Shown: piece by piece, positions 10,195 to 46,263 of the stretch
How positions within the stretch are numbered: the first letter of the stretch is position 1
How the letters are laid out: the number at the start of each line of letters is the position of its first letter
Assembly: GCA_011109175.1 (NCBI GenBank)
Contig: RDEW01000044.1
Span: 261,661-307,923, forward strand
DNA length: 46,263 nucleotides
From: Dicyema japonicum
Taxonomy: Eukaryota > Dicyemida > Rhombozoa > Dicyemidae
Reading direction: 5' to 3'
The notes under the pieces: generated by a model
Databases searched by the model: none
The model's input: the letters and a program-made list of their open reading frames with translations, nothing else
Told to the model about the DNA's origin: nothing
Program-made: the position numbers and the translations under genes

Positions 10195-10633
10195 AGTTTC
10201 CACTTCTACAGAAACAGAGTCCATCCGGAATCAGCATAAAGGGTAAGACGTCCATTACATGCAGTTGTGGAAACCCCTCCAGTGAACATGATTCTGCTTT
10301 GGTTTCTGTGGCTTTCGGAATGATCTCTCTGAACTTCGCAAGAATCGAGTCCCATTCAGGATGCGGAAATCTAAAATTGGTAATTTCACACATCGAGGTG
10401 TGTAGAGTTAGGCACAGACATTCCATTTGAACTATCAGACTTTTCAAAACAATCCAGTACATCCTTTGGATGGCCGCCCATAGTGAAATCATCCAGATAC
10501 CATACTCTTAGAGGAGTGGAACAATATCTTGTGATATTGGCAATTACCAGGCTGAAATAGACAGGACCTAGTGGCTCTCCTTGTTAGACTCCAGAGGACG
10601 ATGGAATGGAGTATTGGCTTTGTACCAGACTGT

Positions 10634-10824
10634 AAGGTTTTCCGTAAGATATTAAATTAAAATTATTACAAAGATCTATGAACAAAACTCTACACTGATG
10701 GGTAGAATGTGAAGCAATCCTCAAGAATNAAGGTTTTCCGTAAGATATTAAATTAAAATTATTACAAAGATCTATGAACAAAACTCTACACTGATGGGTA
10801 GAATGTGAAGCAATCCTCAAGAAT
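10634..10824. repeat. 95-bp direct duplication joined by a single n
   Basis: Bases 10634-10728 and 10730-10824 appear identical, with one n at 10729. The n at an exact repeat junction is what a failed overlap merge between two contig ends would leave. A single copy gives a more continuous RT. Confidence 0.85.
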
Positions 10825-13793: not shown

Positions 13794-14363
13794 GTGGTTG
13801 TTACGAAAAATACAGACACAAAAATGAAGACTAATGAAAAAAGGAAGGAAAACACCTATCCATGTGAAAAGTGCAACGTAACTAATATGAGAAAAAGGAT
13901 GATCGCTTCTGCAGCCTGTTCAAGATGGTATCACAGGTCTTGCGTACGATTGTCCAAGAAGGCTCTTATCAATATGACAAAATGGAACTGCCAACCATGC
14001 CTTTCATCTGGTACTGCTTGCACTGAACCATTTGACCCTACTCTCGTAGCAGATCCTGATGTAGCTCTGAAACTGATCTCTCGAACGCGCTCGGACGTGC
14101 CCATTCCGGTGAAGATTCCCAAAGGTGCGAGAACTGCCGTTGCCGAGGCTCTGATCTCCACCATCAAGGATGTTTTGAAGCCTGACGACGTTTCTTCGGA
14201 GTGGGTCAAACTTTTCCTTTTCCCGTCACTCACTCTTGGGATCAGAAGACCAACGGAAGCATCCACTTCTCTCGCAACGAATATCAAAAAGAAAGTTAGA
14301 CTGTTTCTAAATGAACATAAAATGTCACTTACTGCTTTAAAATCAACTCAAATTGCACCCCGG
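13794..14363 (+). CDS. PHD-finger N-terminus of a LINE ORF (partial, runs into gap)
   Basis: An open frame of 190 codons ends at the assembly gap. A GTG begins the longest frame; the first ATG in frame is about codon 10 and is the likelier start in a eukaryote. Residues 22-70 form a PHD-like zinc finger (C..C spacing, CSRW.HRSC, then WNCQPC). Residues about 100-180 match the IPKGAR.A.A.AL...I..VL domain that, from memory, sits N-terminal to the GG.RPIAVG-type RT. It probably belongs to the same family as the minus-strand LINE at 10126-11950. This part has no stops, unlike most elements nearby, so the copy may be young. The RT would lie in the gap. Confidence 0.6.
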
Positions 14364-15033
14364 NNNNNNNNNNNNNNNNNNNNNNNNNNNNNNNNNNNNN
14401 NNNNNNNNNNNNNNNNNNNNNNNNNNNNNNNNNNNNNNNNNNNNNNNNNNNNNNNNNNNNNNNNNNNNNNNNNNNNNNNNNNNNNNNNNNNNNNNNNNNN
14501 NNNNNNNNNNNNNNNNNNNNNNNNNNNNNNNNNNNNNNNNNNNNNNNNNNNNNNNNNNNNNNNNNNNNNNNNNNNNNNNNNNNNNNNNNNNNNNNNNNNN
14601 NNNNNNNNNNNNNNNNNNNNNNNNNNNNNNNNNNNNNNNNNNNNNNNNNNNNNNNNNNNNNNNNNNNNNNNNNNNNNNNNNNNNNNNNNNNNNNNNNNNN
14701 NNNNNNNNNNNNNNNNNNNNNNNNNNNNNNNNNNNNNNNNNNNNNNNNNNNNNNNNNNNNNNNNNNNNNNNNNNNNNNNNNNNNNNNNNNNNNNNNNNNN
14801 NNNNNNNNNNNNNNNNNNNNNNNNNNNNNNNNNNNNNNNNNNNNNNNNNNNNNNNNNNNNNNNNNNNNNNNNNNNNNNNNNNNNNNNNNNNNNNNNNNNN
14901 NNNNNNNNNNNNNNNNNNNNNNNNNNNNNNNNNNNNNNNNNNNNNNNNNNNNNNNNNNNNNNNNNNNNNNNNNNNNNNNNNNNNNNNNNNNNNNNNNNNN
15001 NNNNNNNNNNNNNNNNNNNNNNNNNNNNNNNNN
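14364..15033. other. Assembly gap (670 n)
   Basis: A run of n. The long frames reported through it are artefacts of translating n as an unknown residue. The 28 bases that follow the gap reappear exactly at 19222-19249, next to another n. Confidence 0.99.
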
Positions 15034-15186
15034 ATATCCCAGATTATCTACACAAGCACTGACAATTATTTTAAATTTTCAACAACATATTTTTGTGAAA
15101 CAGTTTTTCTGCATCTTATGAAATATAATATACTAGAAAATTTGAAAAATATTGATGCTGAAATTCGAGTTATAAAAAAATAAAAA
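15034..15186 (+). mobile_element. hAT transposase C-terminal fragment
   Basis: Across one frameshift the sequence reads YPRLSTQALTIILNF then STTYFCETVFLHLMK, followed by ENLKNIDAEIRVIKK and a stop at 15181-15183. This is the hATC end (typically Y-P-x-L...A...LL-F-x-T-x-Y-x-C-E-x-x-F). The first 28 bases equal 19222-19249, the truncated end of the hAT relic at 18800-19249, so the two pieces may be one element separated by a scaffold error. Confidence 0.7.
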
Positions 15187-16234: not shown

Positions 16235-17700
16235 ATGAACAGAACTATTAATTTTATCATATTTATTCTGTTAAGCAAAATCGTCAAAATAAAATGCGGT
16301 CAGAGATATTTGTTAATTAATTCATATGTAATTTATAAGAAACCTTCTATAGTATATATTTCGTTAACTTTAGGAACATCAGTTATTGAGGTTAAATCAC
16401 GATCTACTAATAGATGACTGGAAAACTTATGGAACGTATAGTTTTTTTCTATCTGATATAAAATTTACACTTATTCCAAAATTTTACAGTGAGTTTTATA
16501 CTATTGACTTTATAACAGAAATTGATTATGGTACGATTTTTGTTATACTAAGGTGGTAAACGTTATACAAATATCACAGAGATTCCTAAAACTAGATATG
16601 GAGATTATTATCGATGTGGTTATACTCATATTAGTTTTTCGAATAATTTATCTGTCACAATTTATTCAAACAAGTTGCAATATCACGATAATGATAGTTT
16701 GTACTATTTTACTGGAAAAGGTTTTTATTAAAATTTATTTAGCTAATGACTGTAACCCAAATAACGACCCAAATACGGCGATTTGGTTTTTATTTAACAA
16801 AAAGAGAATCGGAGGAGTAATAAGTGGAAATATCAAAATATCATATATTGACAATAACAAAATTGTACACGTGAGCATTGATTCTTAGATAACAGATGAG
16901 CATTTCAGTGATTATGCATATAATAGGATAACAAATTATTATCATGACTATAGATACATATTGACTAGTAAACATACTACTATAACTATTACGGCGTTTA
17001 AACAATCTGAGAATAAATATCATATTCATAAATTTTCTGTTTGTGTTGGGTACAGAAGAATCAAATGTGTTTCACTTAAAAAGCGATTTAAACAAATTAA
17101 AATGGGAGGATATTGTCTATGTGGATTCATCTCACAGAGTTATAAAAGGTACAGAAGAATCAAATGTGTTTCACTTAAAAAGCGATTTAAACAAATTAAA
17201 ATGGGAGGATATTGTCAATGTGGATTCATCTCACAGAGTTATAAAAATGTGTCTATCGAAATTTCATCACTAAAATTACAATTTTTCCGTGATGATTTGA
17301 TTTTTGAATTTATTGGAGATGGTAAATAAATCCAACTGAATTTTAGATGAAGGATGCTTTGAAACACAATCATCTACTAAAATTAAAGGCAAAAAAACCA
17401 ATTTTACAGATGGTTAGTAAACTCGACTGAATTTTAGATATATTAAGTTTTGAAGAACTATTATCGTCTGAAAGCAAATCCGTAAAAAAACTGACGAAAC
17501 ATCAAATAACTAGAATCACGTGTGGAGTTGTCGGACTAGTGTTGTCATTGGTACTATTTATAATACTTACTGGCGTCATTGCTAATATTTATATCAAAAT
17601 GAAATCCCGTAAAGAATCACTCTTCACCAAACCATNGTTTCAAACCACAAAAGAATCATTTAACAAAAATCAGATACTCATGTTTATGAGGCTTTTTTGA
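16235..17700 (+). CDS. Type I membrane protein, family copy B (unrecognised, tiny introns)
   Basis: The ATG at 16235 starts a signal peptide (MNRTINFIIFILLSK, then CG), followed by an ectodomain, a membrane segment at about 17517-17590 (ITCGVVGLVLSLVLFIIL) and a basic tail (KMKSRK) ending at the TGA of 17698-17700. GT-AG introns of 22, 22, 24, 25 and 25 nt (16531-16552, 16721-16742, 16865-16888, 17322-17346, 17413-17437) join blocks such as YGGKRYTNI, FTGKANDCNPNN, NNKIITDEHF and IGDDEGCFE. The first exon boundary near 16345-16390 is unclear, and one base seems missing near 17095 relative to copy A, where a 99-bp duplication also lies. One n occurs at 17637. No database family comes to mind; a secreted or surface receptor-like role is only inferred from topology. 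Confidence 0.6.
17049..17246. repeat. 99-bp tandem duplication inside membrane-protein copy B
   Basis: Bases 17049-17147 and 17148-17246 differ by one base (gtctatg versus gtcaatg). Copy A has only one unit here, so either copy B gained an in-frame (33-codon) duplication or two alleles were assembled in tandem. Confidence 0.8.
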
Positions 17701-23120: not shown

Positions 23121-23207
23121 TAATGGTGGCTCGGCCTCCTACAAGTTAGTGAGGCCGGGATTACTTAGCTTCTAATTTAATTTTATTAAATTCCACTGGA
23201 GGGGTTA

Positions 23208-23411
23208 CCACAACTGTAAGCTCCGGAAGGACTCTTTCTGTAGTAGTGGAATCTGGATGCACTTAACTAGTCGTTTACTTTTAACTTCTTTCTCGGTGCA
23301 TAGTTTGGGTTTCCACAACTGTAAGCTCCGGAAGGACTCTTTCTGTAGTAGTGGAATCTGGATGCACTTAACTAGTCGTTTACTTTTAACTTCTTTCTCG
23401 GTGCATAGTTT
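23208..23411 (+). repeat. LINE 3' end, 99-bp unit present twice
   Basis: 23208-23306 and 23313-23411 appear identical, separated by gggttt. Each unit matches the 3' end of the minus-strand LINE at 10147-10225 (ccggaaggactctttctgta then ggatgcacttaactag...aacttctttctcggtgcat). The stem is GGATGCAC/GTGCAT, against GGATACAC/GTGTATCC in the other copy, a compensatory change. The tail continues as ttttaataaattaaa. The doubling looks like the other assembly-type duplications. Confidence 0.7.
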
Positions 23412-28137: not shown

Positions 28138-29500
28138 ATGTCTTTTCTCTCAACGAAATTGAAACTTTTACCTCCTGATCCGATTTTCAAAGCTAATGAG
28201 GAATTTCAGGCCTCCACAAACCCCCAAAAGCTAAACCTTTCCATTGGAGGTCTCTCATTGTGATATTTTAGCTTACACCGATGAGGATGGGACCGTGTAT
28301 GTGCTAAATACTGTGAAGGAGGCCAAAGCTATGATCCTGCAAGACTCCAAGGACACACATCAATACCTACCCATAACCGGATATCCTCAACTTAATGACA
28401 TCTGCGGAAAGCTCATTTTTGGGGATGATAACTCCTTCAAAAATAAGGCACTAAGTTGATTCATTTCCAGTTCGTAGCCTTCCAAGTGTTGGGCGGAACC
28501 GGAGGATTCTTTGTGGGGGCAGAATTGCTCAATAAGTACTGCAATTTAGAGAACGTCGTGATCCCTTCCAAAACCTGGGGTTAATAGTCTTTGGTAATCA
28601 TAGGTTCTCACAATTCCATCTTCCGTAACATGAATTACGTGATTACAAACTACAAGATAGAAGCCAACTCTGATGGATCCTTGGCAATTGATCAAATCGT
28701 TGAAGACTTGAAGGTCATTTGTGCTAGATTATTCTAGAAATGTCCAGAAAAGTCTGTTGTCATACTCCAAGCTTGTTGCCATAACCCATGTGGGTTGGAT
28801 CCTGAGCAAGAAGGTTGGAAGAGGATTGCGGATGTAATAATGGTTGATTTTCTGTTATTTTCAGGAACGGAATTTGGTCCCCTTCTTAGATTTGGCCTAC
28901 ATGGGATTTGGGTCATTAAATATGGCTGATGATGCATGGGCTGTCCGTTATTTTGCCTCTTTGGGGATCGATTTTCTCGTCAGTGTCTCCTTCTCTAAGA
29001 ACTTTGGCCTTTACGGTAATGGTAGGGTATTTTACTCCCAGGGGAGAGGATCGGCTGTTTGATGGTTTTCGCTAAGGACACTGAATGTTTGGAGGCTTTA
29101 GCTAGCAACGTGAAGGCCATAATTAGGTGTGCGTACTCGACTCCCCCCAGTTTCGGAGCGAAAATTGTGATGAAGATCTTTTCGGACGACATATTGTATA
29201 GGAAATGGCAGGAAGAATTGAAGACACTTACGAAAAGGGTTATCAAGGTCCGGGGGATGCTGTATGAAAACCTGAAATCTAAGGGAATTGACTGGCCGCA
29301 GATAACGAAGGCTAGGGGGTTCTTCTTTCAATCTCCACTTAGTGGTAAGTCACGTGGTTTGAAAGGCAGAAGAACAGGTTAATCGGTTGAAGGCAGATTG
29401 GGATTTGTTTATTCTTCCAAATGGGAGAATTAATATGGCTGGATTGTTGGCGGACAGGGTAGACGATCTGGCAGCTGCTATTAAGGATGTTTCGACTTAA
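28138..29500 (+). CDS. GOT1: Aspartate aminotransferase, cytosolic type, with seven ultrashort introns
   Basis: Catalyses the reversible PLP-dependent transfer between aspartate and 2-oxoglutarate. The ATG at 28138 (MSFLSTKLKLLPPDP) to the TAA at 29498-29500 reads as one protein after removing introns 28250-28271, 28448-28470, 28580-28603, 28714-28737, 28843-28864, 29016-29041 and 29345-29369 (22, 23, 24, 24, 22, 26 and 25 nt). Six are GT-AG; the second is GC-AG or imprecise. The spliced length is 1197 nt, exactly 399 codons, giving 398 residues against about 410 for the family. Junctions recreate family sequence: NLSIG/AYTDEDG, KTWG/SHNSIF, EDLK/KCPEKS, IADVIM/ERNLVPFLD, FGLYG/ERIG. Active-site residues are present: YLPITGY, TWG, HNPCG, FLDLAYMGF (PLP Asp), SFSKNFGLYG (Schiff-base Lys), RCAYSTPP and GRINMAG (substrate Arg). 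No mitochondrial presequence is evident. Residues after FGDD are two shorter than usual at the doubtful second intron. Confidence 0.9.
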
Positions 29501-31994: not shown

Positions 31995-32880
31995 TAAATA
32001 AACTGAAGAACAACAAGAGTGCTGGGCCGAACAACATAAGTCCTGAGCTCCTAAAATATGGGCCAAAAAACTTAGCGACACAATTGCAAAAACCCTAAAT
32101 GCCGTCTTTGTAACTAATACCGATCTAGGACTTGGAAATGGATTATTATTACCCATACAAAAACCAAACAAATCAAAAGGACCAGTAGAAAATTTCCGAT
32201 TCTGAATTCGATACGCAAGGTGCTGGCAAACATTGCACTAAATCAGATAAAGGGTGTGGCGGATCTATACATACCAGTATGTCAAAGTGGGTTCCGAAAT
32301 GGGAGGTCTACGGCAGACATTGTATGGAGCCACAGNNNNNNNNNNNNNNNNNNNNNNNNNNNNNNNNNNNNNNNNNNNNNNNNNNNNNNNNNNNNNNNNN
32401 NNNNNNNNNNNNNNNNNNNNNNNNNNNNNNNNNNNNNNNNNNNNNNNNNNNNNNNNNNNNNNNNNNNNNNNNNNNNNNNNNNNNNNNNNNNNNNNNNNNN
32501 NNNNNNNNNNNNNNNNNNNNNNNNNNNNNNNNNNNNNGATAAATAAACTGAAGAACAACAAGAGTGCTGGGCCGAACAACATAAGTCCTGAGCTCCTAAA
32601 ATATGGGCCAAAAAAACTTAGCGACACAATTGCAAAAACCCTAAATGCCGTCTTTGTAACTAATACCGATCTAGGACTTGGAAATGGATTATTATTACCC
32701 ATACAAAAACCGAATAAATCAAAAGGACCAGTAGAAAATTTCCGCTTCTGAATTCGATACGCAAGGTGCTGGCAAACATTGCACTAAATCAGATAAAGGG
32801 TGTGGCGGATCTATACATACCAGTATGTCAAAGTGGGTTCCGAAATGGGAGGTCTACGGCAGACATTGTATGGAGCCACA
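31995..32880. repeat. Duplicated RT segment (about 340 bp) flanking a gap
   Basis: 31995-32335 and 32540-32880 are nearly identical (period about 545) with a few differences, including six versus seven As in gggccaaaaaa, caaacaaatc versus gaataaatc, and ccgattctg versus ccgcttctg. The n run 32336-32537 lies between. This is two alleles or LINE copies joined, not simple error. Confidence 0.8.
32336..32537. other. Assembly gap (202 n)
   Basis: A run of n inside the LINE; open frames through it are artefacts. Confidence 0.99.
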
Positions 32881-33114
32881 GCGCAACGCACCAAAGATTC
32901 AAGAGCGCAACGACCGTGTTGGAAATAGATCTCTCCAGAGCTTTCGACTCAATAAACAGACAGAAACTGATGAATGTGCTTGAGCAATTATTTGATGAAT
33001 CGTCGGTTAGGATAATCAGATTACTATTTGCGAACACAAGGACAGAAGGAGCAACTTCCCGCAGTTTCAAAACAACGATTGGGACACCCCAGGGTGATTC
33101 CTTCTCCCCTTTAA

Positions 33115-33401
33115 TATTCACCATATACCTTGAATCTGCACTTCAACACCTACTAGAAAATGCACCTGCGTAATGTTATATAGGGGATATAGAAGAGACA
33201 TCTTATGCGGATGATGTGGATTTCGTATCACGGAACGTGACCGCACTCCAACACCTANTATTCACCATATACCTTGAATCTGCACTTCAACACCAACTAG
33301 AAAATGCACCTGCGTAATGTTATATAGGGGATATAGAAGAGACATCTTATGCGGATGATGTGGATTTCGTATCACGGAACGTGACCGCACTCCAACACCT
33401 A
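33115..33401. repeat. 143-bp direct duplication joined by an n
   Basis: 33115-33257 and 33259-33401 differ by one base (cacctact versus caccaact), with n at 33258. The unit includes the YADDVDFVS catalytic block, so the RT as written has the catalytic segment twice. Confidence 0.85.
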
Positions 33402-33599: not shown

Positions 33600-34728
33600 T
33601 CATTTAAATTTTTTAATGTCTGGAAGAAAGCGTGATGCCTTGTGGGTTCACTTCGATAAACGTATTATTCCTGGAAAGACCGAAACTCGAGCCAGATGCC
33701 GTAATTGCGGGAAGGAGGTACAAGGTCTCGTATCTCGGATGAGGCAGCATCATTTGTCATGTCGAACTAATACGATATCCCTGGAAATCCGTCGAAACCT
33801 GAAAGTGATTTGATCAGCGAATTCCTCCCAAGGATGAGGGACCAGTCTTTAATCAATTTCGTTACTACGACGACGTCATCGAAGAAAAATTTGATATGCA
33901 ACTCGCTAGATACATATATTCCAGTAACACTCCTTTTGCTGCTGTAGAACATCCGGAATTCGTCAAATTCGTCCAAATGCTTCTTCCTGAGTATCGTTTA
34001 CCCTTTCGTCATGTAGTCCATTGCTCGATCGTGAGTACGAAAAAATACATGAAGATTGTCGGCAAAGGTTCCAGGACAGTATCTATGATGTTGGAAAGTG
34101 GCGTAACATTGATAATGAACTTGTTACTTGTGTGTCAGTTGTAACATCGGATGAAGAAAGCAATCAAATTGACACTGTGGACACCTCTGGATATAGCCAC
34201 ACCGCGGAGTATCTTCAATCTGTTGCTTTAGCTTCTCCAAAGTCCGCTGAGCAACGGATTGGATGTAAAATCGCGAGTTTTGTAACAGACAATGCTGCTA
34301 ACGTGACTAAAATGAGGCGGATTGATGCAAGATGACGATGAAATTATTACATATGGTTGNAAATTGACACTGTGGACACCTCTGGATATAGCCACACCGC
34401 GGAGTATCTTCAATCTGTTGTTTTAGCTTCTCCAAAGTCCGCTGAGCAACGGTTTAGATGTAAAATCGCGAGTTTTGTAACAGACAATGCTGCCAACGTG
34501 ACTAAAATGAGGCGGATAATGATGCAAGATGACGATGAAATTATTACATATGGTTGCTCGGCACATTATCTTAACCTTCTCTCAAAGGATGTCGAAGTAG
34601 CTGACGTTAAAGAAACCATCGTAAGAATAAATAAATACTTTAGAAACGTCCTCACATTCAAATATACGAAATAGGCTGGAAATTGAAAAGGCTGCCAAAC
34701 TTGTCTTTGTTTACAAGCTTTTCAAATA
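33600..34728 (+). mobile_element. hAT element with BED finger and partial transposase
   Basis: The ATG at 33616 begins a BED zinc finger (ALWVHFDK..., RCRNCGK, then RMRQHHLSC). Transposase blocks follow in shifting frames: LARYIYSSNTPFAAVEHPEF (33902-33961), LLDREYEKIHEDCRQRF (about 34020), DTSGYSHTAEYLQSV, CKIASFVTDNAANVTKMRR (34264-34320 and again 34459-34515), EIITYGCSAHYLNLLSKDVE (34539-34598) and VRINKYFRN. It then jumps to HSNIRNRLEIEKAAKLVFVY (34658-34717), near the C-terminus, so a central block is deleted. The 5' end abuts LINE D sequence. AT-rich flanks with aaaaaaatcat words may be terminal repeats, but I could not pair them convincingly. Confidence 0.8.
34166..34556. repeat. Diverged 194-bp direct duplication joined by an n
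   Basis: 34166-34359 and 34361-34556 match with several substitutions (gcttta/ttttta-like, cggattgg/cggtttag, gctaac/gccaac) and a two-base indel (gcggattgatg versus gcggataatgatg), with n at 34360. The differences suggest two alleles or element copies collapsed in tandem. Confidence 0.8.
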
Positions 34729-35590: not shown

Positions 35591-36135
35591 TATACAAGGA
35601 TGTCCATGAAAGAAAGTTTAATAATAACATTTTTAAATGATAAGATTCTATGTAGTCAAAAACTATACAAGATAATTGCCTGGATTCTAAACGAAACGTA
35701 CAGTAAAGGAGTCACCTTGCCACTTGGAGAAGGACTATTGATACCAGTACAGAAGTTAAACATAAAAGCGGGGAAAGTTGAGAACCTAAGACCAGTGGTA
35801 TTAACCAACACATTACGAAAGATACTAGTCAATATTACGCTTCAAAGAATGGAGGGACGCCTAGACTCGTACCTGTCGGCTTATCAAAGTGGCTTCCGCA
35901 AAGGAAGATCAACGTCAGATGTTATATGGAGAAGTGCGACTGTTCAAAAATTTAAAATAACGACAACCATTCTGGGAATTGATGTGTCAAAGGCCTTTAA
36001 TTCCGTCAACAGGAACAAGCTGCTGCAAATACTGGAGCACTTCTTGGAGGGCTCAACGATAAGGATGGGTAGGACACTCTTGACGGACACGAGTTTGATG
36101 GTCAGGACTGGCCGTCCAAATTCTTATACAAGAGA
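35591..36135 (+). mobile_element. LINE family D RT fragment, open frame
   Basis: One frame of 210 codons carries LPLGEGLLIPVQKLN, NLRPVVLTNTLRKILVNITL then QRMEGRLDSYLSAYQSGFRK and GRSTSDVIW, motif A ILGIDVSKAFNSVNRNKLLQ and LLTDTSLMVRTGR. These align block by block with 32110-33030. It lacks the catalytic YADD region: after about 36120 the frame leaves RT sequence. It is better preserved than most elements in the window. Confidence 0.75.
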
Positions 36136-36425
36136 ACATGAACTGATCCAATATCATGTGATATTACTGACTCAAGATGAAGGCTCTTTGGACACATACT
36201 CCGTTACGATATGGGGACCCCTGCATACATAACAATGGAGGAGTATTTTGTCTTAGTGGCTTCTCGTTTTAGAGCACAACACTGCCGGTAATCCTAGATG
36301 AAGATCTCAGGAGGATTGGAAAGTGCCTTAAAGATGGGGACGATCTAGATATGCTACGGAACATGGCAACAGATTGAAAAAGATGGGCGAATTTAATTAG
36401 ATTGTTAACTTTGTGTTGCACATGC
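36136..36425 (+). mobile_element. LINE family D C-terminal fragment
   Basis: RLFGHILRYD.GTPAYITMEEYF then VILDEDLRRIGKCLKDGDDL and DMLRNMATD*KRWANLIRLL (about 36275-36400) form the end of the family D protein. It is joined to the preceding RT fragment with loss of the palm. One stop replaces the expected Arg. Confidence 0.6.
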
Positions 36426-41500: not shown

Positions 41501-44500
41501 TCTCAGCGATATAGAGTGATTCGTAGATATCAAATAATCAAAATTTTCCATACTGTCAAAAAATTTCAAATATGAGCTCCCCCTCTGAAGGAGATCTAGT
41601 ATTCACTTTCAACAGGAAGACTATCAAAGCCTCAGAAGGTTATTGGAATGTTATAAACGTGATTTAGTCGTCGACTGTAAGGTCACTGTAGCGGAGACAA
41701 ATTATGCTGGGACTACTTCAGTTACGAAAAACGGATTTAAATGCCAGAAATGGAATTCTTCAGGTTGAGCCTTTTAGTAAATGGCAAGAATATAATTTCT
41801 GCAGAAATCCCGACGGAAAACCCTTAGGTCCTTGGTGCTACATTGACTTGAACCATACTACATGGGAGTATTGCGACATTCCCTTATGCAGTAGCATTTC
41901 TGAGATATTAAAGCTCAACTGAATGCGACCAACATGAAAAGTGTCTTGGAATATTTCCCCGACATTGGGATACTGTACGTTTCTGGGTACTCCAACTGCG
42001 AAAATTCTCGGTATTACATAGCTCTCCTGTCGTACAAGGGGAATGCCGAATCAATTCAGGTCACATTCGTCAAATGAATTTTTAGGTGAACACATCAAAT
42101 GATCGAATTCAAATATCCCACTATTTAGTGGCTGACGGTCACCTTCGTACGTATATTCCACAATCAATGGTAAGACAAAAGTTTTCCGAGCCACAAGTTG
42201 AGGTTATAATAAACGAATCTCCTTCCCTTTGCTCTGGGAATTGTTCTTTTTCAGTAGCTAACATGTCTACACCAACAGTCACCTCAATTGAGCCTCTTTC
42301 GAGTTTACTAACTGATCATTTTTAGTACAAAATCCCGAAACTAACATAACACTACGAGGGACTCTATTCAGCGCAAATTTATCATCAAATACTATTCTGC
42401 TTGGTGGGAACGACTGTGTGCCATTTCAATCTTCTCCCAACGAAATAAACTGTTCGTTGAGAATTCGAAATGACATAAACTCCCTCTGCAACGTTTCCGT
42501 ATTGGTAGACCCTATCGGATACGCCAGATTGGCCCAAGAGTTTTGTCTAAATCCTCAAATATCTGTTACCAACATCTCCAGGAATGTTAGTTCCATCAAT
42601 GGTGGCTAAATCTGTTATACTTAGGGGGTGAATATTTGACTATCAATGGCTTCGGGTTCCAAGTTTTGTCTAAATCCTCAAATATCTGTTACCAACATCT
42701 CCAGGAATGTTAGTTCCATCAATGGTGGCTAAATCTGTTATACTTAGGGGGTGAATATTTGACTATCAATGGCTTCGGGTTCCAAGCAAACATGAAAATC
42801 CTTGTCGATTCAAAGTCCGCGGTGATTGTAAGGAGGTCAATGTACAGAGTGACGTTTGTGACCCCAATCCAAAACGTATTTAAATTTTAACGATTTAATA
42901 GTCCATTGGAATATACAGAATTTCGTTATTTAATTTAAACAGATTTTATCACGCTGGAGTTATTGTTTACGAAGATTCGACAACTCCCATGGTTTCGGGG
43001 GTGCATCCTACTCATCTTAGTGTCGCAGGTTGGCGTTTTTTATTCAGCCAAGGGAGTCAAACATTAACACTCAATATAAGTAATTTGCTATGTGGAAATG
43101 AAACTGTAGTCTTGAATATAAACAACGTTGAAATCAACCAGTCTTCCTGCTCTAATTACTCTTACTATTTCCTTACTCCGTCTTTGTCCCCCGGAAATTA
43201 TTCTTTTGAGGCAAAAACCCGAAACGGAGTAATCAACAAGTATTCGTTTTGAAAATTAAGAGAATATAAACAACGTTGAAATCAACCAGTCTTCCTGCTC
43301 TAATTACTCTTACTATTTCCTTACTCCGTCTTTGTCCCCCGGAAATTATTCTTTTGAGGCAAAAACCCGAAACGGAGTAATCAACAAGTATTCGTTTTGA
43401 AAATTAAGACTCAGCCAATACAACCTGATTTATGTGTAAATGATTACGTCAATGTTCCCAACAGGTGGGTCCATCTTTGGAGGAACTGAACTGAGCATTG
43501 GTGGAGAAGGTCTTGGAAATAGCTCCGAAATCTCAGTAAGATTGGGGAACCATCGGTGTGAAGTGAATTTCGTAAATTCGACATTTTTAAGCTGCAAAAC
43601 ATCCGAGAGTGCGAATGTACAAAAAGTAACAAACCTTGGGGTACATTCACGTACTGATATTACTAATATATAGAAAATGGAAAGGGGTACCGATGGCTGC
43701 CTGACGAAGTAACAATCCGAGTTGGCGACTATGTAATGTGGGAGTGGTTCTCTCCACTTAGAATTACCTCTATAAATTATAAGATTCATCAAACACACTC
43801 CCTCACAAATACGAAATTCCTTTCTCGGGGATTCGTTAGCGGAAATGCTTCAAATTCTGGTATTTCATGCTTTAAATTTACAAGGAACATATAAACATCA
43901 GTTTCTAAAGCCGGGGAAGTACTTTTACTGGTCTCTCCCGGTCGTTGCCGACCGTGATTTGTCCTTGAAGGGAATCGTGAATGTGGTCAATAACAAAGAT
44001 GAATCGTTCCCCCTAAATGTGACGATGGTGGGTATTCTTCCAGAATATGCATGTATGCGGTTATTATTATTTTATCAGTAAACAACAGTCTAACCCAGCC
44101 TCAACCCCCTAATTGCCCGAATATAGTAAATAATTGTACCCTGATTTCTGACTTTAACTTTACCTATTCAAATTGTGGGGGTCCGAAAATCCTCTCCGTC
44201 TCCCAGCCAAATAGGGGCTTCTTTGGGAGTATAATCATTACTGGTATAATATATTTGGAAAATACAGGGACTAATTTTGGTGGCAGAACATGCCAGAACT
44301 CCGTCAGCATTGATGGCCAACGATGCGTCGTCTTGGAATCCAATAAAACTCGAATTACCTGCAAAATAGACGAACTGCACAACTCTTCATTTGGCTACAA
44401 AAGGCTGATGAGAGTTTGGACTAAAAACGTTGGATACGGACTTTTCAAACTTTCAAAGGATTCAATAAACTCTGTTTATCTTATGCCCGAAATATCAACG

Positions 44501-46263
44501 GTTGTCCTTAACAAGAGATCAACTAAGGGGGATACTTTGATCAAAATAACCGGATGGGGATTCGACGTAAATTCAACACAAGTCAGGATTGGTCCCAATT
44601 CGTGCTTCATCGAATCTCTAAATGGGACTCAAATATTATGTCGAACTCAAAATCACTCGGTTGATGCCATCCTAAATATATCGGTCAAAGTAACGGGGGG
44701 TAGAAGTTATTACGCAGTGAACACTAACAATATCGGATTCCACTACTCCCAAAATTTTACGCCATTCGTATTACGAATTGAACCCACGAATATTACGGGA
44801 CCAAACACGACCATAAAACTGTCGGGGATAAATGTGACGTCAGTGAACGGGAGGAGTATATTGAGAATGCAAAACAGGGTGTACTACTCACTGAATAACT
44901 CCCAAAGTGGAGCTTACTTTCTGATTCCATATCTGGATGTTGGAGAACATCAGCTTTCATTGGACGTCGAAGGATACGGGAAAGCTGAATTTAGAGTGAA
45001 TAACACGATAAATAGCTATGGATATACCTCGACGGTAGAACCGGCTTCTGGTAGCACACATGGGGGAACGACGGTAAAAATAACGGGATTCGGATTCAAC
45101 TGTAACAACATAACGGCTACTATGGAAAACGTAACCTGTAGAATAACTCAGTGTCAAGTAAACGAGGTGGGTTTGTTGTATATAAAATAGTTATTTTGTC
45201 TGACACCCCCCTTATTAACGAGTGGGAGTAAAAACCTGTCTGTGATCAGTGCCTCATATTCCTTCAACCAACTAGCGTTTAGTTATGAACCCAGTAAAAG
45301 TCCGATGATAGGCTTCGTAAGGCCGATGAGTGGAAGTGCAAATACTCAAATTTTAATTGCTGGGAGTGGTAGTCAATAATCTATCAATTAACTAGGTTTC
45401 GTGGGTAATGAAAGCGACAACATCGTGCTTATAGGGAACGAGATATGCAATATTATATCATTTTCTCTGTTTATAATATCTTGTTCAGCACCCGACCAAG
45501 GGTATGGGAATTATTCTATAAAAATCAAACATCTTATTTACGGAGACTCAAACTCTGTGGAAAACTACACCAACGTGCTATCCATATCGGATATATACCC
45601 AGGGATAGGTAGACTTTGGTTGCATTGATTAGGGGGATATGGAGGCAAACAGGTGGTTCAGGTGCGTGGAAATGGATTCACTCGAGACATGAATATTTCG
45701 ATTTGTGGAATATATTCCAGAATTTTATCACTGTCGAATCACTCCGAAATGCTGGTTGAGACTCCCACGATGACTTGTGATCCTCACATACTTATTGTAG
45801 ATTCGCAAAATAACACGAACTGCTCAGTCACCATAAACACAAGCACAGCAATTATAAACTACTCCAATCAATTTACTTACAATTCGAGTGATACTTCCTT
45901 CATTTACTATGTTACCCCCAAAAGAGGAGGAACTGGGGGAGGAACTAATCTCTCAATTTATGGATTCGGCTTCAGGTCAATACGTTTTGTTAACAACCAG
46001 GAATGACCTGAATGCGACCAATGTCACAATTGACGGTTCTGTCTGCATCATAAGATTTATCAACAATTCTCTGATCCAATGTGAGTCATGTCTCCACCAC
46101 GAAAACGCTAGATCCCCCGTACAAGTTTATTCTTCGAGAAGTGGATTAGCAGTAGCTGTTAGTCAAACGATGTGATAAATTTAGAGAAATGTCTCAGATG
46201 TGATATTCGAGTATGTGAACGTCTGGTCTTCGCGATTTACCTGGGGAGGTTACGATATACCCA
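38567..46263 (+). CDS. Fibrocystin-L (PKHD1L1)-like giant protein, 5' part, over 30 ultrashort introns
   Basis: The likely start is the ATG at 38567 (or 38579), giving a signal peptide ([15 protein letters not shown]). After removal of GT-AG introns of 19-29 nt (for example 38737-38759, 38905-38927, 39034-39056, 39115-39137, 39441-39464, 39530-39552, 40046-40066, 40123-40145, 40441-40462, 40610-40631, 44053-44078, 45167-45190, 45369-45395, 45609-45632, 45976-46000, 46158-46184) the frame is nearly continuous. Domains in order: IPT/TIG ([12 protein letters not shown]), IPT ([18 protein letters not shown]), IPT ([20 protein letters not shown]), PA14 (about 39795-40300), a kringle, a run of IPT domains ([54 protein letters not shown]), a [21 protein letters not shown] segment, and the start of a G8 domain ([13 protein letters not shown]) at the window edge. 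This order is that of PKHD1L1. Unresolved points are near 41520-41560, 43410-43440 and 43880. Two exact duplications break the frame. A large secreted or type I surface protein is expected; the C-terminal half lies outside. Confidence 0.85.
39795..40640 (+). other. PA14 domain region of the fibrocystin-L-like gene
   Basis: After the intron at 39770-39794 the protein reads [11 protein letters not shown], then [20 protein letters not shown] then HYQFDMN, the tiny intron 40046-40066, [20 protein letters not shown] across intron 40123-40145, and continues into [20 protein letters not shown] and [24 protein letters not shown] and L.K...YYI.IL.K..GES are the core PA14 motifs. Without the introns the domain falls in three frames. 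Confidence 0.8.
41668..41889 (+). other. Kringle domain within the fibrocystin-L-like protein
   Basis: After removing the 29-nt intron 41639-41667 and the 25-nt intron 41764-41788 the segment reads [13 protein letters not shown]..., [39 protein letters not shown] and C. All six kringle cysteines are in their usual motifs (CQ.W, FCRNPD, PWCY, WEYCDIP, C). Kringles bind proteins, often through a lysine-binding site; its role here is unknown. I do not recall a kringle in vertebrate PKHD1L1. Confidence 0.85.
42540..42785. repeat. Exact 123-bp tandem duplication in a coding exon
   Basis: 42540-42662 and 42663-42785 appear identical. With one copy the protein reads [24 protein letters not shown], a normal IPT domain across a 23-nt intron; with both the exon is duplicated and the frame restarts. 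This is best explained as an assembly artefact. Confidence 0.85.
43114..43409. repeat. Exact 148-bp tandem duplication in the fibrocystin-L-like gene
   Basis: 43114-43261 and 43262-43409 appear identical ([12 protein letters not shown]... to ...VINKYSF plus intron sequence). The period is not a multiple of three and the second copy follows an intronic stop, so both copies cannot be translated together. Probably an assembly artefact. Confidence 0.85.

What the first reader, a model, noticed from the sequence alone, without database searches (positions are those of the whole stretch)
28138..29500. Seven introns of 22-26 nt in a complete aspartate aminotransferase gene
Removing seven segments (22, 23, 24, 24, 22, 26, 25 nt) turns a multiply interrupted sequence into exactly 399 codons with every catalytic residue in place, and each junction recreates family sequence. 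Random decay would not produce GT...AG at each break with correct phase. Introns this short are near the limit for spliceosomal splicing and, in animals, are to my knowledge reported only in dicyemids.
Basis: partly seen in the sequence, partly recalled or inferred. Interest (0 to 1): 0.92.

Follow-up and report, generated by a model that had tools for sequence, protein, structure and literature searches.

The report
Tiny introns in a dicyemid gene
The gene is a real aspartate aminotransferase cut by seven 22-26-letter introns, in a dicyemid (a tiny parasite of octopus and squid kidneys) whose genes are already known to have such very short introns; one of the seven was probably placed slightly wrong.

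Summary
The seven short introns are real by sequence evidence; the phenomenon is published. Removing them gives a 398-residue protein that matches a Dicyema japonicum aspartate aminotransferase in UniRef at 390 of 398 residues, or 393 once intron 2 is moved. The organism is therefore a dicyemid, in which introns of about 26 nt were reported in 2007 (PMC2222250; also PMC6543705).

One boundary is probably wrong. Intron 2 is best read as GC-AG at 28448-28470, not GT-AG at 28455-28477.

A survey of 246 protein-anchored introns in 14 conserved genes gives a median of 24 nt, 238 at 30 nt or less. Three features that I did not find in print for dicyemids appear: an adenine at the 7th or 8th base from the intron end in 184 of 235 short introns, GC donors in 13 of 238, and excess in-frame stops in introns of length 3n (65 of 79). 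All are post hoc sequence statistics; no transcript was examined.

The parts
28138..29500 (+). aspartate aminotransferase gene, 8 exons, 398 aa plus stop
28250..28271 (+). intron 1, GT-AG, 22 nt, phase 1; A at the 7th base from the end
28448..28470 (+). intron 2 (corrected), GC-AG, 23 nt, phase 0, AAG|GCA donor; A at the 8th base from the end
28580..28603 (+). intron 3, GT-AG, 24 nt, phase 1, in-frame stop if retained
28714..28737 (+). intron 4, GT-AG, 24 nt, phase 0, in-frame stop if retained; position shared by all five AAT genes compared
28843..28864 (+). intron 5, GT-AG, 22 nt, phase 0
29016..29041 (+). intron 6, GT-AG, 26 nt, phase 1
29345..29369 (+). intron 7, GT-AG, 25 nt, phase 1

Best explanation
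An ordinary working AAT gene of a dicyemid (Dicyema, D. japonicum or a close relative). Its seven introns belong to the class of very short U2-type introns known from this phylum; six are GT-AG and one is GC-AG. Inferred mechanism: the standard U1/U2 spliceosome recognises the whole intron as one unit, with weak 5' and 3' signals and a branch adenine at an almost fixed place, the 7th or 8th base from the intron end, with about 16 nt before it. Shown: the introns in DNA, their consensus, and canonical recognition sequences in U1 and U2 snRNA genes. Inferred: that they are spliced in vivo, and that this adenine is the branch point.
For: D. japonicum AAT at 390/398 identity, 393/398 with corrected intron 2. 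Introns of the same kind in Prp8 (34 of 37 calls pass the flank filter, all 20-26 nt; a second reference, Intoshia linei, places the same 34), in a dynein heavy chain of the DNAH3 type (59 of 63 pass; 58 of these are 22-32 nt, one 79) and in four AAT paralogues. From 325 calls in 17 alignments of 14 genes, 246 are non-redundant and pass: median 24 nt, 238 at 30 nt or less. A at the 7th or 8th base from the end in 184 of 235 short introns against 126 expected, and in 7 of 7 window introns. Branch-binding GTGTAGTA in 8 of 8 U2 copies read; ACTTACCT in 7 of 8 U1 copies read.
Against: No RNA evidence. Whether UniRef B9ZYV4 was translated from cDNA or genomic DNA is not known to me. None of 11 U1 matches reaches Rfam's gathering score (best 69.0 against 69.5). 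Only 2 of 7 window introns have the YTNAY motif at the proposed branch place. The intron 2 correction is disputed by two references and, marginally, by the family HMM. Some surveyed introns are longer (8 of 246 above 30 nt), and alignments that I dropped for poor quality contain many long calls.
Confidence: 0.86

Rival explanations
1. As the best explanation, but intron 2 is the reader's GT-AG intron at 28455-28477, so all seven are GT-AG.
For: References P0002 and P0017 choose it; family HMM 444.0 against 443.1 bits; GT is by far the commoner donor (226 of 246).
Against: D. japonicum protein reads Phe-Val-Ala. Paralogues C170 and C111 on the P0003 scale, and C170, C111 and C83 on the P0002 scale, have an intron at the phase-0 position that matches the GC placement (C83 shows none there on the P0003 scale). 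AAG|GCA fits the other short GC introns. This placement has no A at the 7th or 8th base from its end (direct reading of the sequence).
Confidence: 0.12
2. The gene is a decayed pseudogene and the interruptions are chance insertions.
For: Stops and frameshifts in the unspliced reading.
Against: One splice-like placement at each of seven gaps, about 7e-15 by chance under independence; near-identity to a full-length D. japonicum protein; the same architecture in Prp8.
Confidence: 0.01
3. Minor-spliceosome (U12-type) or self-removing introns.
For: A U12 snRNA gene is present, 85.4 bits.
Against: 0 of 246 introns begin GTATCCT or ATATCCT; too short for a self-splicing fold (general knowledge).
Confidence: 0.01

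Closest known systems
Short spliceosomal introns of dicyemids (D. acuticephalum PMC2222250; Dicyema sp. PMC6543705; D. japonicum PMC6736024; passages read; Ogino et al. 2010 seen only as cited)
   Same: Length (mean 26.2 nt, 16 introns, PMC2222250; median 27 bp, PMC6543705; mean 38.2 bp, PMC6736024), several per gene, weak 5' consensus (PMC2483917).
   Different: PMC2483917 reports no branch-point signature (its table lists 41 D. acuticephalum introns); here 235 short introns show an adenine enriched at the 7th and 8th base from the end. I found no mention of GC-AG introns or a 3n-stop bias for dicyemids in searches.
Stentor 15-16 nt introns (PMC9505925, passages read)
   Same: Branch adenine at a fixed place near the 3' end (position 10 of 15), canonical U1 and U2 recognition sequences.
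   Different: Ciliate; 15-16 nt; GUA nearly fixed at the 5' end.
Paramecium and other ciliate short introns (PMC5014332, abstract read)
   Same: About 25 nt in Paramecium; high frequency of in-frame stops in introns of length 3n.
   Different: There 3n introns are also under-represented in most length ranges; here they are not (79, 76 and 80 for length mod 3 = 0, 1, 2).
Orthonectid Intoshia linei introns (as described in PMC6543705)
   Same: Short introns, similar density.
   Different: Median 57 bp.

Membership tests
Dicyemid short U2-type introns | organism is a dicyemid | tested here: met
   390/398 identity to D. japonicum AAT, 393/398 with corrected intron 2; the other 119 listed hits are at most 41% identical
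Dicyemid short U2-type introns | intron length about 20-30 nt | tested here: met
   7 of 7 here; 238 of 246 in the survey
Dicyemid short U2-type introns | GT-AG (or GC-AG) ends with exact junctions | tested here: met
   the donor of intron 2 is disputed between GC and GT
Dicyemid short U2-type introns | removal from mRNA | not testable with these tools
   no transcript data
GC-AG U2-type introns (intron 2) | AG before the junction and A at +3 | tested here: met
   AAG|GCA; 12 of 13 short GC introns (this one included) have AG and 13 of 13 have +3 A, against 84 and 102 of 222 for GT
U12-type introns | RTATCCT donor (consensus recalled) | tested here: not met
   0 of 246
Aspartate aminotransferase, class I | PLP lysine and substrate arginines | tested here: met
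   Lys249, Arg283, Arg375 and seven others, found by motif with recalled roles; over cut-off of NF006719, aromatic amino acid transaminase subfamily, 392.3 against 377 bits
Paramecium-like translational control of introns | in-frame stop excess in 3n introns only | tested here: met
   65 of 79 against 55.7 +/- 2.8 by shuffling; the two other length classes show no significant excess; post hoc
Paramecium-like translational control of introns | deficit of 3n introns | tested here: not met
   79, 76, 80
Paramecium-like translational control of introns | nonsense-mediated decay machinery | tested here: inconclusive
   PF04050 (Upf2) search: no match here and none in the control genomes, so it shows nothing

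The most novel reading that the evidence does not exclude
Dicyemid introns, said in print to lack a branch-point signature, follow a fixed-distance rule: branch adenine at the 7th or 8th base from the intron end with about 16 nt before it. They tolerate GC donors about five times more often than the animal average. Those of length 3n are kept loaded with in-frame stops, which would be translation-dependent surveillance of tiny introns in an animal, as in Paramecium.
Probability: 0.5. Interest if true: 0.55.

Novelty: already known. Interest (0 to 1): 0.3.

Why it matters
Tiny introns test how little sequence a metazoan spliceosome needs. This gene adds no new principle, but the survey suggests a testable one for animals: a fixed branch-to-end distance instead of a strong sequence, with translation as a backstop when splicing fails. 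Gene finders and RNA aligners with minimum intron sizes above 20 nt, or that allow GT donors only, will misread such genomes.

Tried and rejected
Family HMM to decide intron 2: does not discriminate. A 15-nt intron call in paralogue C83: nested in a 24-nt intron that the other references or a higher minimum length choose, with nearly equal score. Left out of the survey by my judgement of alignment quality, before the statistics were run: dynein C118 (912 of 3065 identities; 22 flank-passing calls, 12 of them 21-27 nt and 10 of 69-1068 nt), dynein locus L035 (372 of 1002, 11 frameshifts; 7 calls of 21-25 nt), dynein C83 (score 483; 19 calls, 3 of 24-25 nt and 16 of 44-952 nt), and three other PLP-enzyme loci with poor alignments (L031, L006, L008). 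I take the long calls there for misalignments, but real long introns cannot be excluded, and the published D. japonicum mean of 38.2 bp points to some. Identity was not a uniform cut-off: the kept alignments run from 33% (AAT C83) upward. Five AT-donor calls in the survey look like misplacements. Donor control: replacing GC by seven other dinucleotides at the same penalty gave 1, 3, 1, 2, 3, 4 and 1 calls in five alignments of three genes, against 4 for GC; the three GG calls look like GC introns shifted by one base. So the number alone does not prove GC donors; the AG|GCA consensus carries the argument. Aligner bias against 3n introns without stops: none seen; 40 of 40 3n introns were recovered after 31 of them had stops changed in silico. 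First branch distances for the five-letter motif were off by one; one search is correct. Intron positions in other animals' AAT genes could not be tested. Ogino et al. 2010 is not held.

Full report
What is there. The window lies on contig C131 of a 64.67 Mb assembly in 191 contigs. The gene at 28138-29500 becomes 398 codons plus stop when seven segments are removed. The taxonomy entry puts D. japonicum in the phylum Dicyemida. The organism is therefore a dicyemid, D. japonicum or close to it. The published D. japonicum genome is 67.5 Mb (PMC6736024, passages read).

Correction of intron 2. An intron of the same length 7 nt upstream, 28448-28470, with donor GC and phase 0, restores Phe-Val-Ala and reduces the differences from 8 to 5. 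In AAT paralogues an intron sits at the same place and phase: C170 and C111 on the P0003 scale (179, phase 0), and C170, C111 and C83 on the P0002 scale (99, phase 0); C83 shows none there on the P0003 scale, and C1 shows none there on either. A family HMM built without the Dicyema protein does not decide: 444.0 bits reader, 443.1 mine.

Survey. In 17 alignments covering 14 genes (five AAT genes, Prp8, and whole or partial dynein heavy chains from eight loci) it called 325 introns; 246 are non-redundant with good protein match on both sides. Median 24 nt, range 20-171; 238 of 246 at 30 nt or less; donors GT 226, GC 15, AT 5. Prp8, a core part of the spliceosome, carries 34 accepted introns of 20-26 nt (37 called; the three others are at the N-terminus), and the Intoshia linei reference places the same 34. 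The sample is biased to conserved genes, and alignments that I judged poor were left out; several of them contain long calls (listed under Tried and rejected). The distribution for the whole genome may therefore have a longer tail.

Five AAT genes. Besides the window, C170, C1, C111 and C83 carry AAT genes with short introns. On the P0003 scale the position 253, phase 0 is shared by all five, and the window shares 119.1, 179.0, 217.1, 253.0, 288.0 and 340.1 with C111. The shared positions suggest introns older than the duplications, with lengths that drift by a few bases; one C170 intron at a shared position is 45 nt.

Splicing signals. 8 of 8 U2 copies read carry GTGTAGTA, and 7 of 8 U1 copies read carry ACTTACCT near the 5' end; 22 of 25 U2 matches pass Rfam's cut-off, while none of 11 U1 matches does, the best by half a bit. 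In 235 introns of 30 nt or less, an A stands at the 7th or 8th base from the intron end in 184 against 126 expected, p = 5e-15, and the motif YTNAY is in excess at just these two places, 30 and 29 against 11.6 and 11.1. All seven window introns have such an A, but only introns 2 and 6 have the full motif there. A 2008 study reported no branch-point signature in dicyemid introns; its table lists 41 from D. acuticephalum (PMC2483917, passages read). Stentor introns show a comparable fixed place (PMC9505925, passages read).

GC donors. 13 of 238 introns of 30 nt or less have GC donors, against 0.983% of splice site combinations in animals (PMC7072748, passages with its table read; p = 9e-7). 12 of 13 have AG before the junction and 13 of 13 have A at +3, against 84 and 102 of 222 GT introns. 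Caution: seven other dinucleotides at the same penalty also gave 1-4 calls in five alignments of three genes, against 4 for GC.

Stops in 3n introns. [quoted passage not shown] shuffling expects 55.7 +/- 2.8 (p = 0.001). The other two classes show 44 of 76 (40.3 expected) and 33 of 80 (34.7). Stop density inside 3n introns is 60 of 474 codons in frame against 59 of 914 out of frame (p = 1.6e-4), and 74 of 855 in frame in non-3n introns (p = 0.02). Changing stops in silico in 31 of 40 such introns did not stop the aligner from finding all 40. Introns of length 3n are not rarer than others, unlike in ciliates (PMC5014332, abstract read). The test was thought of after seeing the data and rests on three gene families. 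Both 3n introns of the window gene (3 and 4) carry a stop. Whether this genome has nonsense-mediated decay is untested: the one search made shows nothing either way.

What is known. Very short uniform dicyemid introns are in PMC2222250 (mean 26.2 nt, 16 introns) and PMC6543705 (median 27 bp), passages read; PMC6736024 gives a mean of 38.2 bp for D. japonicum. PMC6543705 cites Ogino et al. 2010 for 40 D. japonicum genes, which I could not read. Searches showed me nothing on GC-AG introns, branch distance, nonsense-mediated decay or the minor spliceosome in dicyemids beyond the 2008 statement; I saw their listings and read passages of a few papers only, and the library lacks most subscription journals.

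Verdict. What may be new is the set of splicing rules suggested by the survey.

Noticed in passing
181-516, 10633-10824, 17049-17246, 23202-23411, 33114-33401, 34166-34556, 42539-42786, 43114-43409: Eight arrays of two near-identical copies (units 96-195 nt, 96-100% match), 1.7 per 10 kb; twelve other fetched stretches (111 kb) hold six, 0.5 per 10 kb. Recent micro-duplications or assembly artefacts.
   Followed up: partly
L050 1501-1629 (C68:163471-163599, minus): A U12 snRNA gene, 85.4 bits, the only match listed, with a 5' end that looks typical from memory: the minor spliceosome may persist in this reduced genome.
   Followed up: no
L004, L007, L029, L030 and the window: Five aspartate aminotransferase-like genes, which seems many for a small gene set.
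   Followed up: partly
13794-15059: Long open frame (422 aa) with a PHD finger.
   Followed up: no
32766-33170 and 35600-36229: Reverse transcriptase pieces (RVT_1), element-like stretches beside the gene.
   Followed up: no
44051-45187: Open frame of 379 aa with three IPT/TIG matches.
   Followed up: no
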